Shown here piece after piece: positions 8,038-19,393 of a stretch of DNA of 64,000 nucleotides. The translations under genes were made by a program, and so were the position numbers. The notes below the pieces were generated by a model. The model was not told where the DNA came from. It did not search any database and worked only from the letters and a program-made list of their open reading frames with translations. The stretch spans positions 8,311,001 through 8,375,000 of the forward strand of contig NZ_JARUBN010000001.1 of NCBI RefSeq assembly GCF_029626265.1. The letters run 5' to 3'. Source of the stretch: Micromonospora sp. WMMD1102 (GTDB taxonomy: Bacteria; Actinomycetota; Actinomycetes; Mycobacteriales; Micromonosporaceae). The first letter of the stretch is position 1, and each line of letters opens with the position of its first letter.

Positions 8038-8167
8038 GCAACCTCCTTCAATGTATAAACGGACTCTACTTGCCGTCGGCAATGCGGTCCATGATCAGAA
8101 ATTGCGGATTCCTGGCTTTGCCTGATCTTTTCGTTTGCCGCGCTGGTACGACACGCGATCCGGGTGA

Positions 8168-8196
8168 TTGCTGGGAAAGACTGGAACTTGTACCCT
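8168..8196 (+). promoter_or_regulatory. Predicted promoter of gene A, leaderless type
   Basis: A -35 like TTGCTG at 8168-8173 and a -10 like TACCCT at 8191-8196 are separated by exactly 17 bases. The GTG of gene A lies 7 bases after the -10, so transcription would begin at or next to the start codon, giving a leaderless message. The same arrangement is duplicated at 13129-13157. Confidence 0.6.
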
Positions 8197-8203
8197 TCGG
8201 CTC

Positions 8204-9073
8204 GTGGCCGGCTCCATGGAAGCGCTGGAACGCAGGATCGACGCCCTCCGGGCCGAGATCCGGCGCTCGGTGGTGGCCAGGGACGCGGCCCGGACCAGGG
8301 GACTTCGCGCCGAGTTGCGGGCCGCCGAGCAGGAGTGGGAAACGGCGATCACCGAGCTGGCCGAGGAGACCGGTGACACCGGCACCGGCCGGCCGGCGGC
8401 GAACTCGCTTCTTCCGGTACGCGACCAGGTGCACCACGCCCTCACCCTGCTCTCGGTGCCGGCGGCGCCGAAGCTGGTCGCCGAGGTGCACGCCGCGTTC
8501 TTCGGCACGGCGGCGGCCGGTGCGCTCGCCGCCGGCAGGCTCACCCACCTGCGCCGGGACGAGAAGCGCTCGTTCAGCTCGGCGCCGTACGCGCGGCCGT
8601 ACTATCTCTGCGCGGCGCTGACCGCCGAGCACCTGGCACCGGCGCGCGGCCTGGTCGCGGTCTCCACCTGGCCGCTGGAGCGGCGGATCGTCGGCCCGCT
8701 CAGTCCCCGGGTCGACTTCCTCACCGCCGCCGTCCGGGTCGCCGAACGGGCCGGTACGGTGCCGGCCGGCAACCCCAGCCTGGCCCGGCTGGTGTGGCGG
8801 TTCGCCAGCAACATCCCCGGCGCGCTCGACACCACCGGCCGGCCCGACACCCTGGACCCGGGAACGGTCATCCGGGCGGCCGAGGCGGAACGGGTGGTGC
8901 ACGCCGACGCCGACCAGGCGCACCGGGCGGCGGCGGCCGAACGGGCCCGCCGGCAGCTCGACCAGCTCGACCAGCTCTTCGGTAATACGCTGCGGACACT
9001 TCCGGGCACCACGACCCGGCGGGGCGGCACGAAGCCGGCGGGCAACCCGACGGTCCAGGAGAAGACGGCATGA
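8204..9073 (+). CDS. Gene A: coiled-coil plus winged-helix protein of a putative DNA-processing island
   Basis: A 289-residue protein. Residues 1-55 form a charged coiled coil (LERRIDALRAEIRR). About 65-115 read as a winged helix (VHHALTLLSVPAAPKLVAEV, then LTHLRRDEKRSF), followed by an Arg-rich region and a C-terminal coiled coil. It is probably a DNA-binding or regulatory component. The GTG at 8204 fits the leaderless promoter; ATG 8216 is the alternative. Its stop overlaps the start of nuclease gene B by 4 bases, so the two are coupled. Its first ~106 bases with promoter reappear upstream of gene C. Confidence 0.7.
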   Translation: MAGSMEALERRIDALRAEIRRSVVARDAARTRGLRAELRAAEQEWETAITELAEETGDTGTGRPAANSLLPVRDQVHHALTLLSVPAAPKLVAEVHAAFFGTAAAGALAAGRLTHLRRDEKRSFSSAPYARPYYLCAALTAEHLAPARGLVAVSTWPLERRIVGPLSPRVDFLTAAVRVAERAGTVPAGNPSLARLVWRFASNIPGALDTTGRPDTLDPGTVIRAAEAERVVHADADQAHRAAAAERARRQLDQLDQLFGNTLRTLPGTTTRRGGTKPAGNPTVQEKTA

Positions 9074-10269
9074 CGACCATCAGCATGGACACCGGCCGGA
9101 GCGCCGCCGAGCGGTTGGCCGCGATCCGGGGCGCGGCGAAGCCGAAGCGGCACAACGCGCGGACGATCGCCGCGCTGACCCGCAACCCGGGCTGCGCCCG
9201 GCGGGCGGTGCTGGACACCGCAGGGGTGGACAAGCAGCGGCTGGCGGCGTACGTCGACTTCCCGGCCTGGTTCGGGCAGTCCGGCTTCGCCATCGCCCGG
9301 GGCAACGCGTTCGAGGCGCAGGTCAAGGCGAGCGGCGCCGCCGAGCTGGTGAAACTGCTCCGGGAACGGCTCGGGCTGCCGATCCCCGAGGTGGCCTACG
9401 ACGACCTGGAAACGGTGACCGGGCGGGAGAAGGAAACCCCCGAGGTCCGGTACGCCCGGTCCCGCGCCCTGCTGCTGCGGGCCGCCGCCGGTGCCGACGG
9501 TGCCGGCACGCTCCTCGACCATCCGCTGCTCGCCCTCGACGTGGCGGGCCAGCGGGTCTATCTCGAACCGGACCTGATCGCCTTCCGGCACGAGGGGCGG
9601 TTCCACGTCGTCGAGATCAAGTCGTTCGCGGTGGTGGACGGGCAGGCCGATCCGGCCAAGGTGTCGGCGGCGGCGATCCAGTCGGCCGTCTACGTGCAGG
9701 CGATGCGGGCGATGCTGGCCGAGGCCGGGCACGACCCGGAGATCGTGTCGCACGACGTCGTACTCGTCTGCCCGCGCGACTTCTCCAACTCCCCGACGGC
9801 GGTACTCGTCGACGTACGCCGGCAGTTGGCCGTGCTGCGGCGGCAGCTGCGCCGGATGACCAGGGTGGAGGCGATGCTCGCCGCGCTGCCGCCGGACCTC
9901 AGCTTCGACCTGGCGCCGGACGCCGACGGTGTGCCGACCCGCTCCCCGGAAGCACTTGTCGACGCCCTGCACAGCGTCGACGCCCGGTACGTCCCGGACT
10001 GCCTGTCGGTCTGCGAACTGGCCTACTTCTGCCGGGCCGAGGCGCGCGGCTGCACCGCCGCGCTCGGCACCTCGACCCGGGAGGAACTGGGTGGGATCGA
10101 GCGGGTCGAGACCGCGCTCGGGCTGGCCAGCGGCAGGCTGGAGGCGGCCGAGGACCAGGCGGAGGCGGCGGCACTGCTCCGGAACGCCGCCCGGCTCCGC
10201 GCCGAGCTGCTGCCGGCGGCCGGGCGGGTGGCGGCGTCCGTCCCGGCCGACGGGCGCCCCGCCCACTGA
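9070..10269 (+). CDS. Gene B: Cas4/RecB-like PD-(D/E)XK nuclease with Cys cluster
   Basis: A 399-residue nuclease candidate. The core is visible at about residues 160-225: LEPDLIAFRHEG followed by VVEIKS (the D...ExK catalytic set) and the downstream Gln-containing helix AAIQSAVYVQAM. One Cys near the N-terminus (RNPGCARRAVL, about residue 39) and a C-terminal cluster C-x3-C-x5-C-x6-C (DCLSVCELAYFC, ARGC) match the Fe-S layout of Cas4, AddB and Dna2 nucleases. No CRISPR array or other cas gene is near. Coupled to A by ATGA overlap. With helicase D it could form a split Dna2-like nuclease-helicase (inference). Confidence 0.8.
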   Translation: MTTISMDTGRSAAERLAAIRGAAKPKRHNARTIAALTRNPGCARRAVLDTAGVDKQRLAAYVDFPAWFGQSGFAIARGNAFEAQVKASGAAELVKLLRERLGLPIPEVAYDDLETVTGREKETPEVRYARSRALLLRAAAGADGAGTLLDHPLLALDVAGQRVYLEPDLIAFRHEGRFHVVEIKSFAVVDGQADPAKVSAAAIQSAVYVQAMRAMLAEAGHDPEIVSHDVVLVCPRDFSNSPTAVLVDVRRQLAVLRRQLRRMTRVEAMLAALPPDLSFDLAPDADGVPTRSPEALVDALHSVDARYVPDCLSVCELAYFCRAEARGCTAALGTSTREELGGIERVETALGLASGRLEAAEDQAEAAALLRNAARLRAELLPAAGRVAASVPADGRPAH

Positions 10270-10306
10270 GAGCTGGCTGGCTGCCACCGGCACCGCGCAC
10301 CGGCCG

Positions 10307-13012
10307 CTACCTAGGGTCGCGTACGTCCCGGAGGACGGAGACCGGACGCCCGTGCGGGTCGGGCACGCTGGCGGTCACGTTCCGCACGGTGACACCGTCG
10401 ATGTGTCGTCGGTACCAGCCGTAGCCGGGTGGGGCGGTCCAGTGCCATGCCTCCGGATAGCGGCCGTCGTACTCGTCGGGTTCGACCGGAGTGGCGGCGC
10501 CGCCGGAGAGCAGGTCGAACCGGATGTCGTCGAGCAGTACGTCGTAGATCCCGGCCGTGCCGCCGGCCTCGCGGGTGCCGGAGAGCAGCGCGGCGTTGCC
10601 GAGGTGGTTGGCGGGGCGGCCGTCGGCGATCCCGGTGGCGGTGATGTCCTCGAAGCGCAGCCCGCTCACCCACCTCGGGTCACGCGCCGGATGCGGCACC
10701 CCGGCGCCGTCGACCCAGACCCGGCGGCCGATCAGGACGAAGACCGCCCGGCGGATCCGGTCGACGGTGATCCGCCGGAACGTGACATCGTGGACCGCGC
10801 CGCCGTCGACGGCGGTGATCACCAGCGCGCCGATGGTGACGTTCTTGACCAGCACGTCCTCGACCACGATGCCCTGGAACACGCCGTGGCTGGCGGTGCC
10901 GAGCTTGACCCCGTTGGCCCGGGTGGAGGCGCCGACGGTGGAGAGTCGCACCACGGCACCCCGCACACCGTGGCTCGGTGATTCCGGCTGCACCTGGGCG
11001 CTGTCCGTCGGGTGGGTCTTGAAGCAGATCGCGTCGTCGTCGGCGAATACCGCGACCCGCTCGACGAGCAGGTCGTGGCTGTCGACGATGTCGATGCCGT
11101 CCCGACCGCCGACGATGCTGCTGTCGATGTCGACGTCCGCGATGGTCAGTCCGTCGATCTCGGTCGGCACCAGTCCCCAGGCACCGGAGTCCTTGAGGTG
11201 GATGTCGCGGATCGTGACGTCGGTGCCCCGGGCCAGATAGACGGCGGCCGGGCCGGTCCGCTCCGGCGTCAACCCGGTCCACGGCGGGTTCCGGCCGTCG
11301 CCGTCGACCACCCCGCCGCCGGTGATCAGCAGGTTGTCGGCGCGGTGCGCGAAGAGCAGGGCCCGCTGCACCAGCCCGCCGACGAACGGCGGATTGTCGG
11401 CGCCGCCCCGCAACGGCGGATAGGCGGCCTCGTCCCGGCTGCCCAACAGTTTCGCGTCCGGGGCGACGAAGAACGTCAGGTCCGACTTCAGGCGTACGGT
11501 GCCGGACCGGAAGACCCCGCCGGCCAGCAGTACGGTGCCACCGGCCGGGGTGGCGTCGACGGCCCGCTGGATCGCCGGACCGTCGTTGGTGACTCCGTCG
11601 GCGACGGCCCCGTGATCGCGTACGTCCACGACGGTGCCGGCCGGGACGGGCAGCGGGTTCTGGTGCACGAGTACCCGGTCGACGAGCAGGGTGCCGGTCT
11701 GGCCGGTGCCGACGGCGAACCACAGCCGGCCGATGTCGGCGGCGGCCGGATCCCGGAACGCGTACCTGGTGGGTGCGGCGGTGCTGCCGCCGGTGGGGTG
11801 GCGCCGGCCGTCGACGTACGCGGTGAACTGCCGGGCGGAGACGTCCAGCACCAGCCGGACGGTGTACCACTCGCCGGGGCGGACGCCCGAGACCAGCACA
11901 TGGTTGGCGCTGCCGGTGACGAGTTGCAGGTGCCCGTTGCTGAACTGGAGCGCCGCCGCCGTACGCCCGTCCGCGCTCTGCGCGTAGAGCGCGACCTTGA
12001 CCCCGGCGGTCTCCTCGGTACGCAGGTTCGCCAGCACGTTCACCGTGCCACCCTGGGCGGGAAAGCTGCGTACCGCGCCGACCTCGCCGGAGGTGCCGGT
12101 CTTGGCCAGCCGCAGGCTGCGGTCCTCGACACTCGGCACCGCGGCGACAGCCGGGGTGCCGCCGGTGCTGGTCAGCGTGTAGCCGGGCGGCGGTGGTCCG
12201 CCGACCGGCGTCTCGTCGAACAGGTCGAACGCCTGGTAGGACACGGTCGGATCGGGCACCCGGCGCAACGAGACGTTGTCGACGTGCAGGATTCCGGGAT
12301 AGCCGGCGCCGATGCCGAAGGTGAGCCTGCCGACGTCGGCGGTGGGCTGCCGGAACGGCGCGTCGGCGAGCAGTCGCGCCCCGTCGACGTAGAGGTCGAA
12401 CCGCTGCGGCCCGGTACGCAGCACCACCCGGACGGCGTACCAGCGCTGGGCCGACGCCGGGGCGAGGACCGTGCCGGGGCCGGCGACGTGGAACCGGCCG
12501 TCCCGGATGGCGATGCTGGCCGCCGGGGTACCGGTGGAGCCGGCGACGTAGAGCACGTTGAACCAGCCGGTGGCCCGGTCGACCCGGACTCGGGCCGCCG
12601 CCTCCACGGTGCCGGCGAGCGGGTTCGCGGCGCTGCGTTCGGCGGCCACGCCGGCCGCCGTACCGGACCTGGCGATCCGCAGGCTCCGGTCGGTCTGGTC
12701 GGGCAGTGCCGCGACGCCGACGGTGCCACCGGAGGTGTCGGCGCCCCAGCCGGCCGGAACGCTGCCGGTGCCGGCGTCGTTGAAGTGCTCGCTCACCGCG
12801 CTCGTCGCACCCGGCCCGGCCGCGAGCGGCACCCCGGCGGCGGCGGACGGCACCCCAGCGGCGACGTGCGGCACCGGCGTGGCGACGTCCGGCGCCGGTG
12901 CCGCGACGTGTGGCAGGCGTGCCGTCAGGGCGGCGCCGGTGGTCGGTTCGACCGGGTGCGGCGGGTGACCGGCCAGCAGAGGCACCAGAACCAGGGCGAT
13001 CGAGAGGCGCAC
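10307..13012 (-). CDS. Secreted GH28/pectate-lyase-like beta-helix protein with two LamG-like domains
   Basis: A 901-residue predicted exported protein with a short signal peptide (MRLSIALVLVPLLAG). Two jelly-roll LamG-like or DUF1080-like modules (about 70-250 and 260-455) each contain a DLYVDG/TAYVDG strand. The C-terminal right-handed beta-helix starts with VVDVRDHGAVADGVTNDGPAI (a 20-residue window of it is typical of rhamnogalacturonase-type folds). Acidic residues of GH28 type occur in GRDGIDIVD and ADDDAICFK. Likely cleaves pectin-like polysaccharide. It is transcribed against its neighbours and splits the A-B and C-D gene pairs, so it looks like an unrelated insertion. Confidence 0.75.
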   Translation of the reverse strand: MRLSIALVLVPLLAGHPPHPVEPTTGAALTARLPHVAAPAPDVATPVPHVAAGVPSAAAGVPLAAGPGATSAVSEHFNDAGTGSVPAGWGADTSGGTVGVAALPDQTDRSLRIARSGTAAGVAAERSAANPLAGTVEAAARVRVDRATGWFNVLYVAGSTGTPAASIAIRDGRFHVAGPGTVLAPASAQRWYAVRVVLRTGPQRFDLYVDGARLLADAPFRQPTADVGRLTFGIGAGYPGILHVDNVSLRRVPDPTVSYQAFDLFDETPVGGPPPPGYTLTSTGGTPAVAAVPSVEDRSLRLAKTGTSGEVGAVRSFPAQGGTVNVLANLRTEETAGVKVALYAQSADGRTAAALQFSNGHLQLVTGSANHVLVSGVRPGEWYTVRLVLDVSARQFTAYVDGRRHPTGGSTAAPTRYAFRDPAAADIGRLWFAVGTGQTGTLLVDRVLVHQNPLPVPAGTVVDVRDHGAVADGVTNDGPAIQRAVDATPAGGTVLLAGGVFRSGTVRLKSDLTFFVAPDAKLLGSRDEAAYPPLRGGADNPPFVGGLVQRALLFAHRADNLLITGGGVVDGDGRNPPWTGLTPERTGPAAVYLARGTDVTIRDIHLKDSGAWGLVPTEIDGLTIADVDIDSSIVGGRDGIDIVDSHDLLVERVAVFADDDAICFKTHPTDSAQVQPESPSHGVRGAVVRLSTVGASTRANGVKLGTASHGVFQGIVVEDVLVKNVTIGALVITAVDGGAVHDVTFRRITVDRIRRAVFVLIGRRVWVDGAGVPHPARDPRWVSGLRFEDITATGIADGRPANHLGNAALLSGTREAGGTAGIYDVLLDDIRFDLLSGGAATPVEPDEYDGRYPEAWHWTAPPGYGWYRRHIDGVTVRNVTASVPDPHGRPVSVLRDVRDPR

Positions 13013-13117
13013 GGCCCGGGACTGTAGCCGATATGGAGCCGTCGGGCGGTCCTGGTGCCCGGCTGACGGGTCCCGCTTGGACGGGCTCTGCCCCGGGGAG
13101 GTTCGTCGACGCCACGG

Positions 13118-13223
13118 GATCCGGGTGATTGCTGGAGAACACTGGAACTTGTACTCTCCGGCTCGTGGCCGGGTCCGTGGAAGTGCTGGAAGGCAGGGTC
13201 GACGCCCGCCGAGCCGAGATCCG
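13118..13223 (+). repeat. Degenerate direct duplicate of 8157-8262
   Basis: This stretch aligns without gaps to 8157-8262 at an offset of 4961 bases, covering the promoter, start codon and first ~20 codons of gene A. Weaker similarity continues downstream. The promoter elements and GTG are kept, with substitutions scattered between, so the duplication is old rather than recent. Confidence 0.88.
13129..13157 (+). promoter_or_regulatory. Predicted promoter of the C-D operon, duplicate of the gene A promoter
   Basis: TTGCTG at 13129-13134, 17-base spacer, TACTCT at 13152-13157, then a GTG 7 bases later at 13165. The conserved spacing despite substitutions elsewhere in the repeat argues that this promoter is under selection. 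Confidence 0.6.
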
Positions 13224-13335
13224 CCGCGCGGTGCCGGCCCGCGACCCGGGCCCGCGCCGCGCGGTGCCGGCCCGGCTCCGCGCCGAGCCGCTGCCGACGG
13301 CGGCGGGAGCGGGAGCGGCGGTCGGGGCGGTGTGA
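13165..13335 (+). pseudogene. A': short remnant of gene A, now a leader ORF of gene C
   Basis: A 56-codon frame whose first ~20 residues (VAGSVEVLEGRVDARRAEIR) match the start of gene A, then drift into Pro/Ala/Arg-rich sequence and stop at a TGA that overlaps the GTG of gene C (GTGA). It lacks the winged helix. It is either a decayed copy or a translated leader that couples translation to gene C. Confidence 0.7.
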
Positions 13336-14855
13336 GTACCCTGACCGCGCTGGCCCGGGCCGAGGCGGTGGCGGCCGGGCGCGCCCAGCGGATCACCACC
13401 GTGCGCCACCTGCACGTAAGCGACCGGCCGCTGGTCTTCATCCCGCTGAGCATGGCCGGCGAGGCGAACGCGCCGCTGGCCGCACTGGTCGGCGACGACC
13501 CGGCCGCGCCGACGCTGCTGGTGGTGCCGCAGCCGCGTAACCGGGACCAGCGGTTCGGCTTCGCCGCCGAGCTGGCCGAGGTGCTGCTGCCCTATCTGGA
13601 CAGCTTCCGGGGTGTCACCGAGGCGGTCACGGCCAACCGGGGCAGGGAGGTTCGCTACCGGTACGTCGACGCGCCGCAGGTACTGGTGCCCAACTCGGCC
13701 GGGATCGGCTTCGTCCGGCTCTTCGGGCGGTCGACCCGGTTCCGGCGTACCGACGGGGACTATCCGGTGCACCCGTCGGTGCCGCTGCTCGGGCAGTGGC
13801 TGACGTTCCTGGCCGACCGGGCCGAACATCCCGGCTCGGGAATGCTGCTGGCGATGACCGAGGCGCTCGGACTGCACTGGGCGACCGGGCAGTCCGCGCT
13901 TGAGGACGCGCACCTGGCGGCGTTGCTGGCCTGGATCGACCCGGTCGACGGGCGCACCGGTGCCGACGCGGCCGCGGCGGCCGAGGACCCGCTGCGCTGG
14001 CCGCCGGCCGGGCCGGTCACCGACCCGACCTTCGACAACGAGATCCTGGCGCCGGCGATGACCGGCTACGAGGAGGCGGCGGCGAGTGGCGACGAGGCAC
14101 TTCGGTCCCGGGCTCTGGGCGTACTCGAAGAAGCCGTGCGGTCGCAGCTTCGGCCGACCTGGGAGCTGATGTGGCGGGGCGTGGCGCTGCTCCGGGGACT
14201 GCCGGCCGGGGCGCGGGTGGCCGGTCGCTGGGCCGAGGACCGGGACGTGTTCGGCAATTTCGCGCTCTATGTGGACGGTGGCGGCCATCCGCAGCCGCGC
14301 CGCGACGGGGCGGTCAACGCGGCGCACCGGCTGCACCGGCTGGAACGGGCGGCACAGTCGTACGCCGTGCAGCGCGCCTACGACGACCCGCTGGTGATGG
14401 CCGATCACCGGCTGACCGGGGAGGCTTTCGTCGGTGAGGTGACGCTGGCGGCCCCGAACCGGATCGACGACAGCGGGAAGCGGCGGGTGCTGCGGCCCCG
14501 GATCCAGGTGACGACGGCGGACGTGGTGCTGGTGCCGGTGGGGACGGTGCTGCACTCGCCGAACCGGCCGGGGCAGCGGGCCCGGGTCGTCTTCGTCACA
14601 CCTGATCCGGCCTCGGGGCGGAACGACGTGGTGCTGGAGTTGTCGGGTGGGTTGGGGCGGTCGCTGACCCCGGCGCCGGGGAGCGTGCCGGAGCTGGGGG
14701 ACCGGCTCTGCTACACGACGCTCTCCGACTCCTTCATGCCGCCGGGGGAGTTCCCGAGCCGGGACGAGACGCCGTGGACCCACGGCGGGCCGCCGCAGGC
14801 GTACGAGGAGCCGGTCGCGCCGAGCGCCGACGACGCCCGGGAGGAGTGGTCGTGA
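13332..14855 (+). CDS. Gene C: unrecognised protein coupled to helicase D
   Basis: A 507-residue soluble protein with no family I can name. The N-terminal third is helical then alternating strand/helix (LVFIPLSMAGEANAPLAALV, LLVVPQPRNRD). The middle is helical and acidic, and the C-terminus has basic strands (GKRRVLRPRIQVTTADVVLV). No transmembrane segment or classical nuclease motif is visible. The start overlaps the A' stop and the end overlaps the helicase start (GTGA at 14852), so C and D are translated together. A role as partner, loader or sensor of the helicase is inference from this coupling. Confidence 0.7.
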   Translation: MSTLTALARAEAVAAGRAQRITTVRHLHVSDRPLVFIPLSMAGEANAPLAALVGDDPAAPTLLVVPQPRNRDQRFGFAAELAEVLLPYLDSFRGVTEAVTANRGREVRYRYVDAPQVLVPNSAGIGFVRLFGRSTRFRRTDGDYPVHPSVPLLGQWLTFLADRAEHPGSGMLLAMTEALGLHWATGQSALEDAHLAALLAWIDPVDGRTGADAAAAAEDPLRWPPAGPVTDPTFDNEILAPAMTGYEEAAASGDEALRSRALGVLEEAVRSQLRPTWELMWRGVALLRGLPAGARVAGRWAEDRDVFGNFALYVDGGGHPQPRRDGAVNAAHRLHRLERAAQSYAVQRAYDDPLVMADHRLTGEAFVGEVTLAAPNRIDDSGKRRVLRPRIQVTTADVVLVPVGTVLHSPNRPGQRARVVFVTPDPASGRNDVVLELSGGLGRSLTPAPGSVPELGDRLCYTTLSDSFMPPGEFPSRDETPWTHGGPPQAYEEPVAPSADDAREEWS

Positions 14856-16240
14856 GTTCTGCTCCTCCTGGCCTGTTCGTGCCCGGTGGTGGAGCTGTGC
14901 TGCCCGGTGGTGGAGCTGGACGGTTGGCGCTGCCGCCGGGTGAGGCGGCCCGGCGGGTGGTCGAGGAGGTGCTGGCAGACCTGCGGAACGGGGACCACCG
15001 GGGGGTGGTGGTCGACTCGCCCCCGGGGGCCGGGAAGTCGACGCTCGTGGTGCGGGCGGCGGGCGAGCTGGCCGAGGCGGGCGAGCCGCTGATCGTGATC
15101 GCCCAGACCAACGAGCAGGTCGACGACCTGATCGACCGGCTGGCGCGGGCGAAGCCGGAGCTGCCGATCGGGCGGCTGTCTGCGAACGAGTACACGGCGA
15201 CGGACCGGATCAGGAACTATTCGACGGTCCGGGTCGCGGCGAAGGTCGCGGACCTGGGCGGGTCGTCCGTGATCATCGGTACGGCGGCCAAGTGGGCGCT
15301 GGTCTCCGAGGGACGCTGGCCGTGGGCGATCGTGGACGAGGCGTACCAGATGCGGTCCGACGCCCTGCTGCGGGTGGCCGGCCGGTTCGACCGGGCGTTG
15401 TTCGTCGGTGACCCCGGGCAGCTGGATCCGTTCTCGACGGTGGAGACGGAACGCTGGACCGGGCTGACCTGGGATCCGATGCAGTCGGCGGTGGCGGCGC
15501 TGCTGCGGCACAACCCGGACCTGCCGGTACACCGGTTGCCGGTCTCGTGGCGGCTGTCGGCCTCGGCCGCCCCGGTGGTGGCCGAGGCGTTCTATCCGTT
15601 CACCGGCTTCTCGGCCGGGACTACTGCTGCTCAGCGATCTCTGTCTTTTGCGACGGCCGGGTTCGGTGGCGGGCCGGTGGACGAGGCGTTGGAGCTGGCG
15701 GCGGCTGGTGGGTGGGCGTTGTACGAGCTGCCGGCCCGGCACACACTGCGGACGGATTCGGAGGCGGCGGACGCCTGTGCGCGGTTGGCGTTGCGGGTGT
15801 TGGAGCGGGGTGCGGTGGCGGTGTCGGAGCGTGCTCCCGAGGGTGTTCCGGTGACCGCTGACCGGATCGCGGTGGGGGCGGCGCACCGGGACCAGGTGGC
15901 GGCGGTCCGGGCGCGGCTCGGGGCGGCCGGCGCGGGGATCACGGTGGACACGGCGAACCGGTTGCAGGGGCGCGAGTACGACGTGGTGATCGTGCTGCAT
16001 CCGCTGTCGGGGCGGCGGGACGCCACCGCGTTCCACCTGGAGGCGGGGCGGTTGTGTGTGCTGGTGTCGCGGCACCGGCACGCGTGTGTGGTGGTGGCGC
16101 GGGCGGGGATCGCCGAGCTGCTGGACGCCCATCCGTCGACCGAGCCGGTGCACCTGAACGTACCGGTCAGGTTCCCCGACGGCTGGGAAGCCAACCAGTC
16201 GGTGCTGGCACATGTCGCGAGCCGTCCAGCGCGCGCTTGA
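14852..16240 (+). CDS. Gene D: SF1B (Dna2/Upf1-like) helicase or AAA_12-type ATPase
   Basis: A 462-residue helicase. Walker A is DSPPGAGKSTLV (about residue 55), with motif Ia region VIAQTNEQVDDL, motif II IVDEAYQM, motif III VGDPGQLDPF and motif IV region PVSWRLS. Motif V is TANRLQGREYDVVIV and motif VI VSRHRHACVV. The TANRLQG-REYDVV form is typical of Upf1/Dna2-like helicases rather than UvrD. No nuclease domain is fused, but a Cas4-like nuclease is encoded by gene B in the same island. It ends 28 bases before the convergent stop of the PLD-helicase gene. Confidence 0.85.
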   Translation: MSSAPPGLFVPGGGAVLPGGGAGRLALPPGEAARRVVEEVLADLRNGDHRGVVVDSPPGAGKSTLVVRAAGELAEAGEPLIVIAQTNEQVDDLIDRLARAKPELPIGRLSANEYTATDRIRNYSTVRVAAKVADLGGSSVIIGTAAKWALVSEGRWPWAIVDEAYQMRSDALLRVAGRFDRALFVGDPGQLDPFSTVETERWTGLTWDPMQSAVAALLRHNPDLPVHRLPVSWRLSASAAPVVAEAFYPFTGFSAGTTAAQRSLSFATAGFGGGPVDEALELAAAGGWALYELPARHTLRTDSEAADACARLALRVLERGAVAVSERAPEGVPVTADRIAVGAAHRDQVAAVRARLGAAGAGITVDTANRLQGREYDVVIVLHPLSGRRDATAFHLEAGRLCVLVSRHRHACVVVARAGIAELLDAHPSTEPVHLNVPVRFPDGWEANQSVLAHVASRPARA

Positions 16241-16267: not shown

Positions 16268-19200
16268 TCAGGCCGCGATACTCCGGGCAGTCGCATAGAC
16301 GTCCGGTGGGAGCGGACTGTCGAGCCGCCACAGCACCCGCATCGGTCGACTGCCGGTGTGCGAGTCGTAGGTCATTCGGCCGGCATACAAGTACGGCGGC
16401 GCGCCGAGGTCGCCGTCCCGGACCTTCGTCTCCCGCACGAAGAGATGCACGGTCGACCCGATCTCGGCATGGCGGATGTACCGCTGTCCGGTCGGAGACG
16501 CCGCCGACGTGGTGCTCTGCGACTCCCATTGGAAGAACTCGTCGGTGATGGCTCGGTCGGCGTACATGGTGGTGGGAGAATAGTGGTGCTCAGACTTGCG
16601 GAGCGTGACGAAAAAGAGATCGGCCTGCTCTTCCGGGACCCACTTGACGCCCTCGCGAAGCTGGGTCGGGTTGGGTACGCCGAAGCCGGCACAGGCTTCG
16701 TCACGGCTGTATCGGGCGTGCACTCGTAGCGGGACGGTCGCCGAGACCGGTCCGGGCGTGAGCCGGTGGATGCGGTCTTCCAGCACGTCAGCCAGCTGGA
16801 CGAGTTCGTCGCACCGGTCGGAGTGCGCCCAGAGTCGCCGCAGCCCTTCCTCCGTGCGATCGAGCGGGATCTTGTTGCCCCACAACATGATGTGCAGAAG
16901 GTTTGCCAATCGTCCACCGCTCGGGCGTCGCTTGGCGGCGACCCGGCGAAGCATGGCGAGGCGGTCCGGGTCGTCCAGGTGCAGCATGCGACCGATGGCG
17001 GCGCCAAGGGCTACGTCATCTGATCCGACAGGGCCATCGCACAGGCCGGCTCGGCGACGGAGCCCGGTCCAGCCGCCGAGGCTCTTGCGACGGTAGATGT
17101 CATCCAGCTCCAGGCCGGTCTCGCGCAGGAAGTCGGCGAGGCTGACATCTCCGAGCTCCTGTAGCTCCTTGCTGAGGTAGGCCGTCGAGGTGGGCAGCGC
17201 GGCCTTGATGTTGGCCAGGACGATGTCCTTTGCTACCCGGTCGAGTTCGATGTGACAGCCGCTGGGCAGGTGAGGGAAGTCGTCTGCGACAGCCTGGGGC
17301 AGTCCTCGGCGGCTGACGCCGGTCAGTGCCCGCCATCGGAGGTCGAAGCGGAAGTTGGCGTGCTGACCGCCGATGAAGTCGAGCACGGTAAGGCAGCCTT
17401 TGCCCTCGTCAAGACGCAGGCCCCGACCGAGCTGCTGAAGAAAGATCGTCGCGCTCTCGGTGGGGCGCAGCATCAGGATCGTGTTGACCATAGGCAGGTC
17501 GACGCCCTCGTTGAACAGGTCGACGGTGAAAAGAACCCGCAGCTCGCCTCGGCGGAACTGGTCGATCAAACGCCTGCGTTGATCTGTGTCGAGGCGCGAG
17601 GTCACGGCTGCGGACCGTACCCCGGAACGATCGAACGACTCGGCCATGCGCTCGGCGTGGACGACGCTGACGCAGAAGGCCAATGCCCGCATCTGCGCGA
17701 CATCCACCTTGTCGCGTACGGCTCGCAGGATCTTCGAGGTGCGCGCCTGGTTGCCGGTGTAGAGCCCGCTCAGCTCACTTGGGTCATAGCCCTGGCCGCG
17801 CCGCCAGCGCAGCGTCGACAAGTCGACGTCGTCATGCAGCCCGAAGTATTGAAAGGGTGCCAGGAGTTGTCGTTCGAGCGCTTCCCACAGGTGCAGCTCG
17901 ACTGCTGTTCGTCCGTCGAACCAGCGACGCACGTCGCCGCCGTCCGCCCGGTCCGGTGTCGCGGTCAGGCCGAGGAGCACCCGGGGTTCGAGCCGTTTCA
18001 GGACGCGGGAGTACGTGGGTGCTTCGGCGTGGTGGAACTCGTCGACGATCACCATGTCAAACCGGTTGGGTGGCAGGTCTCCGTCGCCGAGCCGGTGCAG
18101 GGATTGGATCGAGGCGAAGACGTGCCGCCAGTCGCGTGGTTTCTCGCCCCCGACCAGCACCTCGCCGAAGCTGCCCTGGTGCAGTACTTGCCGGAAGACC
18201 GAGCGGCTCTGTCGGAGGATCTGCTCCTGGTGTGCGATGAAGAGCAGGCTGTCAACCTTGCGGTCGTTCCGGAGACGGCGGTAGTCCAGGGCGGCGACCA
18301 CCGTCTTGCCGGTGCCAGTGGCCATTACCACCAGGTTGCGGTGGCGGCCGTGGACCAGTCGCTCGGCTTCGAGGTCGGCGAGGATTTCCCGCTGGTAACC
18401 GTACGGGTGGACGTCGATGTTCGTGATCTCGATGTCGGCCTCGGCGGTGTCGATCAGCCGGTGAACGCGCGGGAGCCGTTGCCGGCGTTCATGCCGTAGA
18501 GCCTGACGGAGCCGGTCGCCATGCTCCGCCGGGTCGTACGCCTCAAAGGCCGGATCGTTCCAGTAGTCGGTGAACGTCGCCTCGAAGGTGTTGGTGACAT
18601 GTGGCTGCTCAAGACTGGAGACCCGGACATTCCACTCCAGGCCGTCGACCAGAGCTGCGCGGGACAGGTTAGAGGAGCCGACGTACGCGGTGACGACCCC
18701 ACTGGCCCGGCGAAAGAGCCAGGCTTTGGCGTGCAGCCGGGTGGTCTTCGTCTCGTACGACACCTTGACTTCGGCGCCCAGTTCGGAGAGCCGATCCACT
18801 GCGCGTTGGTCAGTAGCGCCGAGGTAGGTCGTGGTGATGACTCGGAGACGGCCGCCCCGAGCGATCAACTCCCGGACGGATCGTTCCAGCATGCGTACGC
18901 CGTACCAGGTGATGAAGGCGCAGAGCAGGTCGACATGGTCTGCCGAGGCCATCTCGGCGTTGACCTCATGGCCGATGCGTGGCTGATGCCGCCCGTTGAC
19001 CAGGAGAGCGCCGGTTGACAGCGGAGTGGTAGGCCGGACGGGGAACTGCGGCGCGGCTGGTGGTGTCGGAGGCTGCGCAATGGCCGTGAGGAGCTGCCGG
19101 TGCGCCTCAGCCAGCTGGTCATCGTTCCCGACCGCTCGCGGCTCGATGTCGGCGATGCGCTCGGCGATGCGGTTGGCCATCTCGATCTGCCTGGCGAGTC

Positions 19201-19393
19201 GCTCGCTGTCGCTGCCGCCGACGGAGCGCAGCGCGCGTTGGACCAGGGTGGTGATATGCCGTGCCAGCACGACGTGGGCATCCGCTGGGTCAAGGTCGGC
19301 TCGTTCGACCAGTTCCGGATCGAAGGCCCGAAGCTTGCTCGCGAGCCTGTTGGTGATGAGGTGTTCGTAGATGCCCCGCGCCAGCTCCGTCAC
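16268..19393 (-). CDS. PLD nuclease-SF2 helicase-DUF3427 protein
   Basis: A 1041-residue multidomain protein. After a helical N-terminus, a phospholipase-D-type nuclease domain is at about 165-290 (LHAKAWLF with GSSNLSRAAL). An SF2 helicase follows: motif I MATGTGKTVVAAL (about 375), motif II VDEFHHAEAP, motif III LLGLTATPDRADG, motif VI QLGRGLRLDEGKG. The last ~350 residues match the layout of DUF3427 proteins. Such fusions are common in bacterial defence islands and in restriction-like systems. It is convergent to helicase D and divergent from the SitI3-like gene. Confidence 0.85.
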   Translation of the reverse strand: MTELARGIYEHLITNRLASKLRAFDPELVERADLDPADAHVVLARHITTLVQRALRSVGGSDSERLARQIEMANRIAERIADIEPRAVGNDDQLAEAHRQLLTAIAQPPTPPAAPQFPVRPTTPLSTGALLVNGRHQPRIGHEVNAEMASADHVDLLCAFITWYGVRMLERSVRELIARGGRLRVITTTYLGATDQRAVDRLSELGAEVKVSYETKTTRLHAKAWLFRRASGVVTAYVGSSNLSRAALVDGLEWNVRVSSLEQPHVTNTFEATFTDYWNDPAFEAYDPAEHGDRLRQALRHERRQRLPRVHRLIDTAEADIEITNIDVHPYGYQREILADLEAERLVHGRHRNLVVMATGTGKTVVAALDYRRLRNDRKVDSLLFIAHQEQILRQSRSVFRQVLHQGSFGEVLVGGEKPRDWRHVFASIQSLHRLGDGDLPPNRFDMVIVDEFHHAEAPTYSRVLKRLEPRVLLGLTATPDRADGGDVRRWFDGRTAVELHLWEALERQLLAPFQYFGLHDDVDLSTLRWRRGQGYDPSELSGLYTGNQARTSKILRAVRDKVDVAQMRALAFCVSVVHAERMAESFDRSGVRSAAVTSRLDTDQRRRLIDQFRRGELRVLFTVDLFNEGVDLPMVNTILMLRPTESATIFLQQLGRGLRLDEGKGCLTVLDFIGGQHANFRFDLRWRALTGVSRRGLPQAVADDFPHLPSGCHIELDRVAKDIVLANIKAALPTSTAYLSKELQELGDVSLADFLRETGLELDDIYRRKSLGGWTGLRRRAGLCDGPVGSDDVALGAAIGRMLHLDDPDRLAMLRRVAAKRRPSGGRLANLLHIMLWGNKIPLDRTEEGLRRLWAHSDRCDELVQLADVLEDRIHRLTPGPVSATVPLRVHARYSRDEACAGFGVPNPTQLREGVKWVPEEQADLFFVTLRKSEHHYSPTTMYADRAITDEFFQWESQSTTSAASPTGQRYIRHAEIGSTVHLFVRETKVRDGDLGAPPYLYAGRMTYDSHTGSRPMRVLWRLDSPLPPDVYATARSIAA

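What the first reader, a model, noticed from the sequence alone, without database searches (positions are those of the whole stretch)
8157..16240. Four-gene Cas4-like nuclease / SF1B helicase system (A-B-C-D), a candidate undescribed DNA-processing or defence module
Seen: A is coiled coil plus winged helix, B a PD-(D/E)XK nuclease with a Cas4/Dna2-like Cys set, C unrecognised, D an Upf1/Dna2-type helicase. A-B and C-D are each coupled by 4-base overlaps. Known: Dna2 fuses a Fe-S nuclease to an SF1B helicase. Inference: B and D are a split Dna2-like machine, with C as adaptor and A as regulator, and the set belongs to a defence island with the PLD helicase next door. I know no named defence system with this exact set.
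Basis: partly seen in the sequence, partly recalled or inferred. Interest (0 to 1): 0.78.

Follow-up and report, generated by a model that had tools for sequence, protein, structure and literature searches.

The report
Split Dna2-like helicase-nuclease operon
Soil actinobacteria carry an unnamed set of genes that looks like a DNA-cutting and DNA-unwinding machine split into separate proteins, with its own genetic switch; because it is nearly universal in the Streptomyces sampled, it is probably a DNA-end-processing tool of the cell that some mobile defence clusters have also borrowed.

Summary
The four genes are real and belong together: A (8204-9073), B (9070-10269), C (13332-14855), D (14852-16240). 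B and C are adjacent in 119 of 120 loci; the exception is this window, where a reversed GH28 gene lies between them. B keeps D, ExK, QxxxY and four Cys in the order of Cas4-type nucleases, though no profile match was significant. D is an SF1B (Upf1/Dna2-type) motor. C is a strictly linked partner of no known family. 'Split Dna2-like machine' is supported at motif level; activity is untested.

'Defence module' is only partly supported: C is in 79 of 81 Streptomyces, patchy elsewhere, and its tree is largely by family. Some mobile copies sit beside SbcCD and Wadjet near ends of linear replicons.

New: CTGG-N6-CTGG repeats precede A in 63 of 78 A-bearing loci and precede B in 0 of 42 without A. 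This genome has two strict sites: before A and, on a shrunken duplicate, before C.

Best mechanism (0.55): DNA-end resection or degradation, B cutting, D pulling, C coupling, A regulating. No name found in the libraries and papers searched.

The parts
8171..8196 (+). Operator/promoter of A: CTGG-N6-CTGGAA repeat (10-bp phase) followed by a TACCCT -10-like box
   Evidence: -10 box by eye
8204..9073 (+). A: coiled-coil protein, proposed dedicated regulator (start GTG 8204 or ATG 8216)
   Evidence: DNA binding not shown
9070..10269 (+). B: Fe-S RecB/Cas4-type nuclease by motifs (C42, D168, E182xK184, Q204xxxY208, C311-x3-C315-x5-C321)
   Evidence: profile match to phage Cas4 not significant (86, 96)
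10307..13453 (-). Inserted GH28/LamG gene (ORF limits; true start probably near 13012, by eye), not part of the machine
13109..13252 (+). Duplicate of A's upstream and first codons (85% identical to 8148-8291)
13132..13157 (+). Second operator copy, upstream of C
13165..13335 (+). 56-codon leader ORF: A's start fused to B's end, stop overlapping C's start by four bases
13332..14855 (+). C: strictly linked partner of unknown family; proposed coupling subunit
14852..16240 (+). D: SF1B (Upf1/Dna2-type) helicase
16268..19393 (-). Neighbour facing D: PLD-helicase-DUF3427, type IV restriction enzyme match; not counted as part of the machine

Best explanation
A-B-C-D is an actinomycete operon for a DNA-end-processing helicase-nuclease built from separate subunits. 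D loads on single-stranded DNA and moves 5' to 3' (inferred from SF1B kin). B cuts the strand fed to it through an Fe-S-braced RecB/Cas4-type site (motifs shown, activity inferred). C couples motor and nuclease (inferred from strict linkage; its helical then beta-rich C-terminal side may stand in for the stalk and small barrel that Dna2-type helicases carry before the motor core). The gene order B-C-D matches the order nuclease, linker, motor within Dna2 (that order is recalled). In Streptomyces it is mainly a vertically inherited genome-maintenance tool; extra copies travel with Mre11-Rad50 (SbcCD) and sometimes Wadjet, where it would resect or degrade ends that those nucleases open. A is a dedicated regulator acting at CTGG-N6-CTGG repeats upstream of its own gene (association shown, binding inferred). 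In this strain an inserted GH28 gene split the operon, and a shrunken duplicate supplies the C-D half with a second operator and a coupled leader ORF.
For: Motifs of B, invariant or nearly so in 116 homologues and in the order of phage Cas4-type exonucleases; D nearest Smubp-2 and Dna2 among solved structures; B-C adjacency 119 of 120 loci, C-D 99 of 120; D kept in 13 of 13 genomes of the type where it is not next to C; C in 79 of 81 Streptomyces; tree of C largely by family; SbcD divergent from A in 7 of 11 accessory Streptomyces loci, in two plasmids and in L081 and L082; operator counts 63 of 78 against 0 of 42, background 234 of 24,200; two strict operator sites in the 8.9 Mb genome, both at this system.
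Against: Profile comparison of B with phage Cas4 proteins is not significant, and the weak PDDEXK_1 matches (4 of 28, best E 0.0098) are no better than unrelated ones in the same scan. Seven B proteins (L083, L086, L133, L222, L223, L228, L229) lack the catalytic set, so cutting is not needed everywhere. Outside Streptomyces the set is patchy. A has no recognised DNA-binding domain. 15 of 78 A-bearing loci lack the strict repeat. No structure or activity data.
Confidence: 0.55

Rival explanations
1. A defence system in its own right: the set senses and degrades phage or plasmid DNA, with A switching it on.
For: Type IV restriction enzyme match next to D here and near D in L060, L063, L065 and L233; Wadjet beside L219, L220, L230 and, for B-C-D, L069; patchy outside Streptomyces; mobile accessory branch.
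Against: 79 of 81 Streptomyces carry C; tree largely by family; no PADLOC match for A (beyond a weak coiled-coil one), B or C; most window neighbours checked are ordinary.
Confidence: 0.28
2. A tool for the ends of linear replicons (telomere processing or protection).
For: SbcCD-linked copies lie 21.5 kb from both ends of the G505 chromosome, 15.4 kb from an end of G404 and about 12.8 kb from the end of the linear plasmid NZ_CP108489.
Against: Accessory copies without SbcCD in G492 and G466 lie more than 1.5 Mb inside; the core copy is interior, for example at 3.81 Mb of 10.68 Mb in G505; genera not known for linear chromosomes carry it (recalled). Only three complete replicons with SbcCD-linked copies were placed, and gene ends are also a general site for accessory genes.
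Confidence: 0.1
3. It acts on RNA: D is a Upf1-like RNA motor and B an RNA-cutting nuclease, as proposed for CoCoNuT systems.
For: D is of the Upf1/Dna2-like kind; Upf1-like CnuH helicases belong to systems predicted to target RNA (PMC11090510, title and passages).
Against: B's motif set is that of DNA nucleases (Cas4, Dna2); some mobile copies accompany DNA systems (SbcCD, Wadjet).
Confidence: 0.05

Closest known systems
Dna2 and bacterial Bad (Dna2-like helicase-nuclease; PMC7430649, abstract and passages)
   Same: Four-Cys RecB-type nuclease together with an SF1B helicase; D matches Dna2 (E 4e-5)
   Different: Here nuclease and motor are separate genes, with an extra partner C and regulator A; no significant profile link of the nuclease part was obtained
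AddAB / AdnAB helicase-nucleases (AdnAB described as main helicase-nuclease of Streptomyces, PMC5869714, passage)
   Same: Nuclease plus SF1 motor for DNA ends (function inferred here)
   Different: D matches AAA_11/AAA_12 (SF1B) and UvrD_C_2 only weakly (E 0.0036); nuclease is not fused to the motor
Cas4 and solo-Cas4 nucleases (PMC5704561, passages)
   Same: Order C ... D ... (D/E)xK ... QxxxY ... C-x2/3-C-x5-C
   Different: No significant profile similarity; B mostly has C-x3-C where the phage proteins have C-x2-C; constant partners C and D
Wadjet (JetABCD) and SbcCD
   Same: Neighbours of some mobile copies
   Different: Separate gene sets; neither contains A, B, C or D
Mokosh and CoCoNuT defence systems
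   Same: Related SF1 helicases (MkoA/MkoC match D at E 5e-10 and 7e-10; CnuH)
   Different: B and C matched no PADLOC model

Membership tests
Dna2/Bad | RecB-type nuclease motifs with four Fe-S Cys | tested here: met
   Motif level only: 116 homologues; cluster itself not testable
Dna2/Bad | SF1B (Upf1/Dna2-like) helicase | tested here: met
Dna2/Bad | Nuclease and helicase in one polypeptide | tested here: not met
   B and D are separate genes with C between
Dna2/Bad | 5'-3' unwinding and ssDNA cutting | not testable with these tools
   Needs purified proteins
Cas4 | Motif order and Cys pattern | tested here: met
   one residue longer first Cys spacing in most B proteins
Cas4 | Significant profile similarity | tested here: not met
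   hhalign probability below 1% against eight phage Cas4/RecB-like proteins
Cas4 | cas1/cas2 neighbours | not tested
   No systematic search for them was made
AddAB/AdnAB | UvrD-type helicase fused to nuclease | tested here: not met
   B and D separate
Wadjet | JetA, JetB, JetC, JetD proteins | tested here: not met
   A-D matched no Jet model (D of L220)
Known anti-phage systems of PADLOC 2.0.0 | Match of the constant proteins to a model | tested here: not met
   None for B and C; A only LmuB at E 0.023; D only to the helicase part of other systems
Defence system in general | Protects against phage or plasmid | not testable with these tools
   Needs a challenge assay in laboratory strains
Defence system in general | Patchy, mobile, defence-linked distribution | tested here: inconclusive
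   79 of 81 Streptomyces but 38 of 51 and 24 of 61 elsewhere; SbcCD/Wadjet beside some copies

The most novel reading that the evidence does not exclude
Filamentous actinomycetes possess a further class of DNA-end helicase-nuclease next to RecBCD/AddAB/AdnAB: a three-subunit Dna2-type machine with a new subunit family (C). Mobile versions pair it with Mre11-Rad50 and sometimes Wadjet near the ends of linear replicons, a bacterial analogue of the eukaryotic Mre11-Rad50 to Dna2 resection line, under a one-operon regulator (A) with its own 10-bp-phased operator.
Probability: 0.35. Interest if true: 0.85.

Novelty: new variant of a known kind. Interest (0 to 1): 0.7.

Why it matters
A gene set whose C is in 79 of 81 sampled Streptomyces, with two of three core proteins outside Pfam and NCBIfam cut-offs, appears to encode a DNA-end-processing machine in bacteria known for linear chromosomes and genome plasticity. 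If it works as proposed it would add a second helicase-nuclease line beside AdnAB, give a bacterial setting of Mre11-Rad50 next to a Dna2-like set, and explain a recurring neighbour of some Wadjet systems. The A-operator pair is small and makes the regulation directly testable.

Tried and rejected
Rejected or not borne out: (1) Cas4 membership; profile comparisons not significant. (2) A phage-borne origin; C and D have no match in the phage collection. (3) A global regulon for the operator; of 16 exact matches to CTGGNNAANNCTGGAA in 12 whole genomes 12 lie at this system and 4 elsewhere in two Actinomadura genomes, not followed up; the control pattern gave one match in all. (4) C as a Cas4-type nuclease; no match to that profile. 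(5) A 958-aa SF1 protein elsewhere in this genome as a fused counterpart; set aside by eye. (6) 'PLuB', the best NCBIfam match to D: an exception model with cut-off 999, which the papers searched did not explain. (7) 'SseB' names given by a source to two C homologues had no Pfam support. Literature searches for a name; I saw listings with abstract starts, and passages of six papers; none described the set.

Limits: loci are partly redundant (L066 and L233 are one genome, L226 and L227 one genome, L145 and L065 share contig length and coordinates), so counts over 78, 116, 120 or 121 loci are not independent and the p-value ignores relatedness. Two of the 42 A-less loci (L113, L135) and some A-bearing ones (for example L123) are cut short upstream. 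One search kept 80 of 581 relatives; searches list 120 of 3052 and of 3360 hits. Left out before alignment: proteins with internal stops, genes with split matches. The tree holds 87 of 121 rows, rows over 90% identical being dropped unless on a priority list; 21 of its 83 inner branches are weak. Genome samples are draws from larger groups. Secondary structure is a propensity estimate. Micromonosporaceae are not one clade in the C tree.
Full report
What is there. The window's nearest relatives are Plantactinospora (C is 96% identical to a protein of Plantactinospora sp. WMMB782). Genes A (8204-9073), B (9070-10269), C (13332-14855) and D (14852-16240) are on the + strand; A-B and C-D overlap by four bases. 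A, B and C have no match over a Pfam or NCBIfam cut-off; in PADLOC B and C have none and A only LmuB at E 0.023; D matches AAA_11 and AAA_12. PHROGs gave nothing convincing for A, B or C.

They belong together. Of 61 related genomes C is found in 26 and B in the same 26, plus one 21.6-bit B match in a 27th. D reaches 341 bits or more in 25 of the 26; the exception, G031, is 80% complete and its contig ends at C. The 35 C-less genomes have no D above 42 bits. Over 120 loci B and C are adjacent in 119, and the one exception is this window; C and D are adjacent in 99, and A-B-C-D contiguous in 72. In Micromonospora-type genomes D is not next to C, but 13 of 13 such genomes searched have a strong D. 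In the four for which I hold both places (G009, G014, G016, G253) D lies on the same strand downstream of C, about 36, 9, 34 and 49 kb away. Of 18 A-less loci's genomes searched for A, 13 have none.

The machine. Across 116 B proteins C42, D168, C311, C315 and C321 never vary; E182 and K184 are kept in 110, Q204 and Y208 in 114. Eight phage proteins annotated as Cas4 or RecB-type exonucleases show the same motif order with C-x2-C-x5-C. B mostly has C-x3-C-x5-C; the divergent L083, L084 and L086 have C-x2-C-x5-C. Against this reading: profile comparison with those phage proteins is not significant; PDDEXK_1 touches four of 28 B homologues at best E 0.0098, no better than unrelated families in the same scan; seven B proteins lack the catalytic set (L083, L086, L133, L222, L223, L228, L229). 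D's closest solved relatives are Smubp-2 and Dna2; all 105 D proteins checked have Walker A and GDxxQ. Walker A begins about 55 residues into D, leaving little room for the domain that Dna2-type helicases carry before the motor (recalled); C shows a long helical and then a beta-rich stretch on its C-terminal side in a rough propensity estimate. That C supplies this part is inference.

Distribution. C is in 79 of 81 Streptomyces, 38 of 51 genomes of the genus of G009, 24 of 61 in the family of G113, 70 of 394 in the class and 11 of 296 in the phylum sample, all 11 within this class. C has no match in 50,697 phage records and three in 72,556 plasmid-collection records, one of them an 11.85 Mb record; D has none in the phages. 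In a tree of 87 C proteins the core Streptomyces/Kitasatospora, Nocardia, Actinomadura/Spirillospora and Streptosporangium/Nonomuraea rows each form a supported group; Micromonosporaceae fall in several places; the accessory Streptomyces copies lie in one 16-row clade of moderate support (91), together with L078, L081 and L082. So the set is core in Streptomyces and patchy but largely family-wise elsewhere, with a mobile branch. This is the main reason why I do not call it a defence module outright.

Mobile copies. I fetched 11 accessory loci from 10 Streptomyces genomes; all 11 have A-B-C-D in order. SbcD lies divergently upstream of A in 7 of 11 (L224, L225, L226, L227, L230, L231, L232; six genomes), with SbcC also detected in 6 of the 7. 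The other four (L222, L223, L228, L229) have neither, and it is these four whose B lost the catalytic set. JetABCD lies beyond D in L230, its last gene cut by the end of the stretch. Two Streptomyces plasmids (L219, L220) have A-B-C-D followed by JetABCD, with SbcD/SbcC upstream, fragmentary in L219; PADLOC identifies the L220 genes as Wadjet I. SbcCD matches also lie upstream of A in L081 and L082, outside Streptomyces. In L069 B-C-D is followed by JetA2 and JetC2. Positions: 21.5 kb from both ends of the G505 chromosome, 15.4 kb from an end in G404, about 12.8 kb from the end of the linear plasmid NZ_CP108489. The other SbcCD-linked loci lie on draft contigs and cannot be placed. Accessory copies without SbcCD in G492 and G466 lie more than 1.5 Mb inside. 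Wadjet enrichment towards Streptomyces chromosome ends is published (PMC10482375, abstract and passages).

A dedicated operator. Upstream of A there are 10-bp-phased repeats of CTGG, mostly CTGGAA. CTGG-N6-CTGG occurs within 150 bp upstream (plus 30) of A in 63 of 78 A-bearing loci, in 0 of 42 A-less loci upstream of B and in 0 of 78 A-bearing loci upstream of B; random 180-bp stretches of the same loci have it in 234 of 24,200. The spacing is specific: N6 63 loci, N16 21, every other spacing from 0 to 21 six or fewer. With T allowed for the first C and a longer stretch, 69 of 78 have it; of the nine without, some have a near form and some are cut or broken at A's start. In 12 whole genomes the pattern CTGGNNAANNCTGGAA has 16 matches, 12 at this system. 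This genome has two, both here; five of the six other genomes of the genus have one each, at the system; G001 has none, its site being a variant. So A and the operator go together, which fits A as its own regulator. No DNA-binding domain was recognised in A, so this remains association.

What happened in this strain. Between B and C lies a reversed GH28/LamG gene, with no match in the stretches of six other genomes of the genus. Just before C, 144 bp (13109-13252) are 85% identical to A's operator and first codons, and about 40 bp (13270-13307) match B's end at 90%. Together they form a 56-codon ORF (13165-13335) whose stop overlaps C's start by four bases. The operator copy matches the pattern exactly, and this window is the only one of 121 loci with the repeat upstream of C. 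The likely history is a duplication of the front of the operon, loss of the middle of the copy, and arrival of the GH28 gene in between; the order is inference. C-D thus seems to keep the same control as A-B.

Neighbours. D faces a PLD-helicase-DUF3427 protein that matches type IV restriction enzymes. A close relative faces D in L060, L063 and L065, up to about 2 kb away, and in L233. L061 lacks it within the stretch, L062 has only a short match farther off, and L064 ends at C. Other window neighbours checked (10 proteins) are ordinary or without family.

How it most likely works. Shown: linkage, motifs, operator association, distribution. Inferred: B cuts DNA, D pulls it 5' to 3', C couples them, A controls the operon. 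I rate DNA-end processing for genome maintenance, with accessory copies recruited to SbcCD/Wadjet clusters, at 0.55; a defence system in its own right is the main rival (0.28). The nearest published machine I found is Bad, a Dna2-like single polypeptide with four Cys and 5'-3' helicase activity (PMC7430649, abstract and passages); AdnAB is described as the main helicase-nuclease of Streptomyces (PMC5869714, passage). This set differs by being split, by C and by A, so it is filed as a new variant, not as a member of Dna2 or Cas4.

Noticed in passing
window 10307-13453 (-): GH28/LamG gene inserted between B and C; no match in the 19-kb stretches of six other genomes of the genus.
   Followed up: partly
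L226 and L227 (G505, 21.5 kb from each chromosome end): Identical SbcCD-ABCD copies at both ends, as expected of long terminal inverted repeats; a match to the type IV restriction enzyme lies nearby.
   Followed up: partly
L222, L223, L228, L229; also L083, L086, L133: B lacks the E/K of the nuclease motif but keeps all four Cys and D168: a possibly non-cutting form.
   Followed up: no
L063:10258-11379 (+): A RhuM-family gene lies between C and D, another interruption of the operon.
   Followed up: no
G450, G453, G454 (L205-L209, L214-L216): Micromonospora-type genomes with a second D and an A about 3-4 kb apart on one contig, probably second complete copies.
   Followed up: no
L069:445-9154 (-): B-C-D is followed on the same strand by JetA2 and JetC2 of a type II Wadjet.
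   Followed up: partly
L251, L253, L254, L255 (G900, G901): Four matches to the operator pattern away from this system in two Actinomadura genomes.
   Followed up: no
L265:1790-4666 (-): A 958-aa SF1 helicase elsewhere in the same genome with a C-terminal extension that looks nuclease-like by eye.
   Followed up: no
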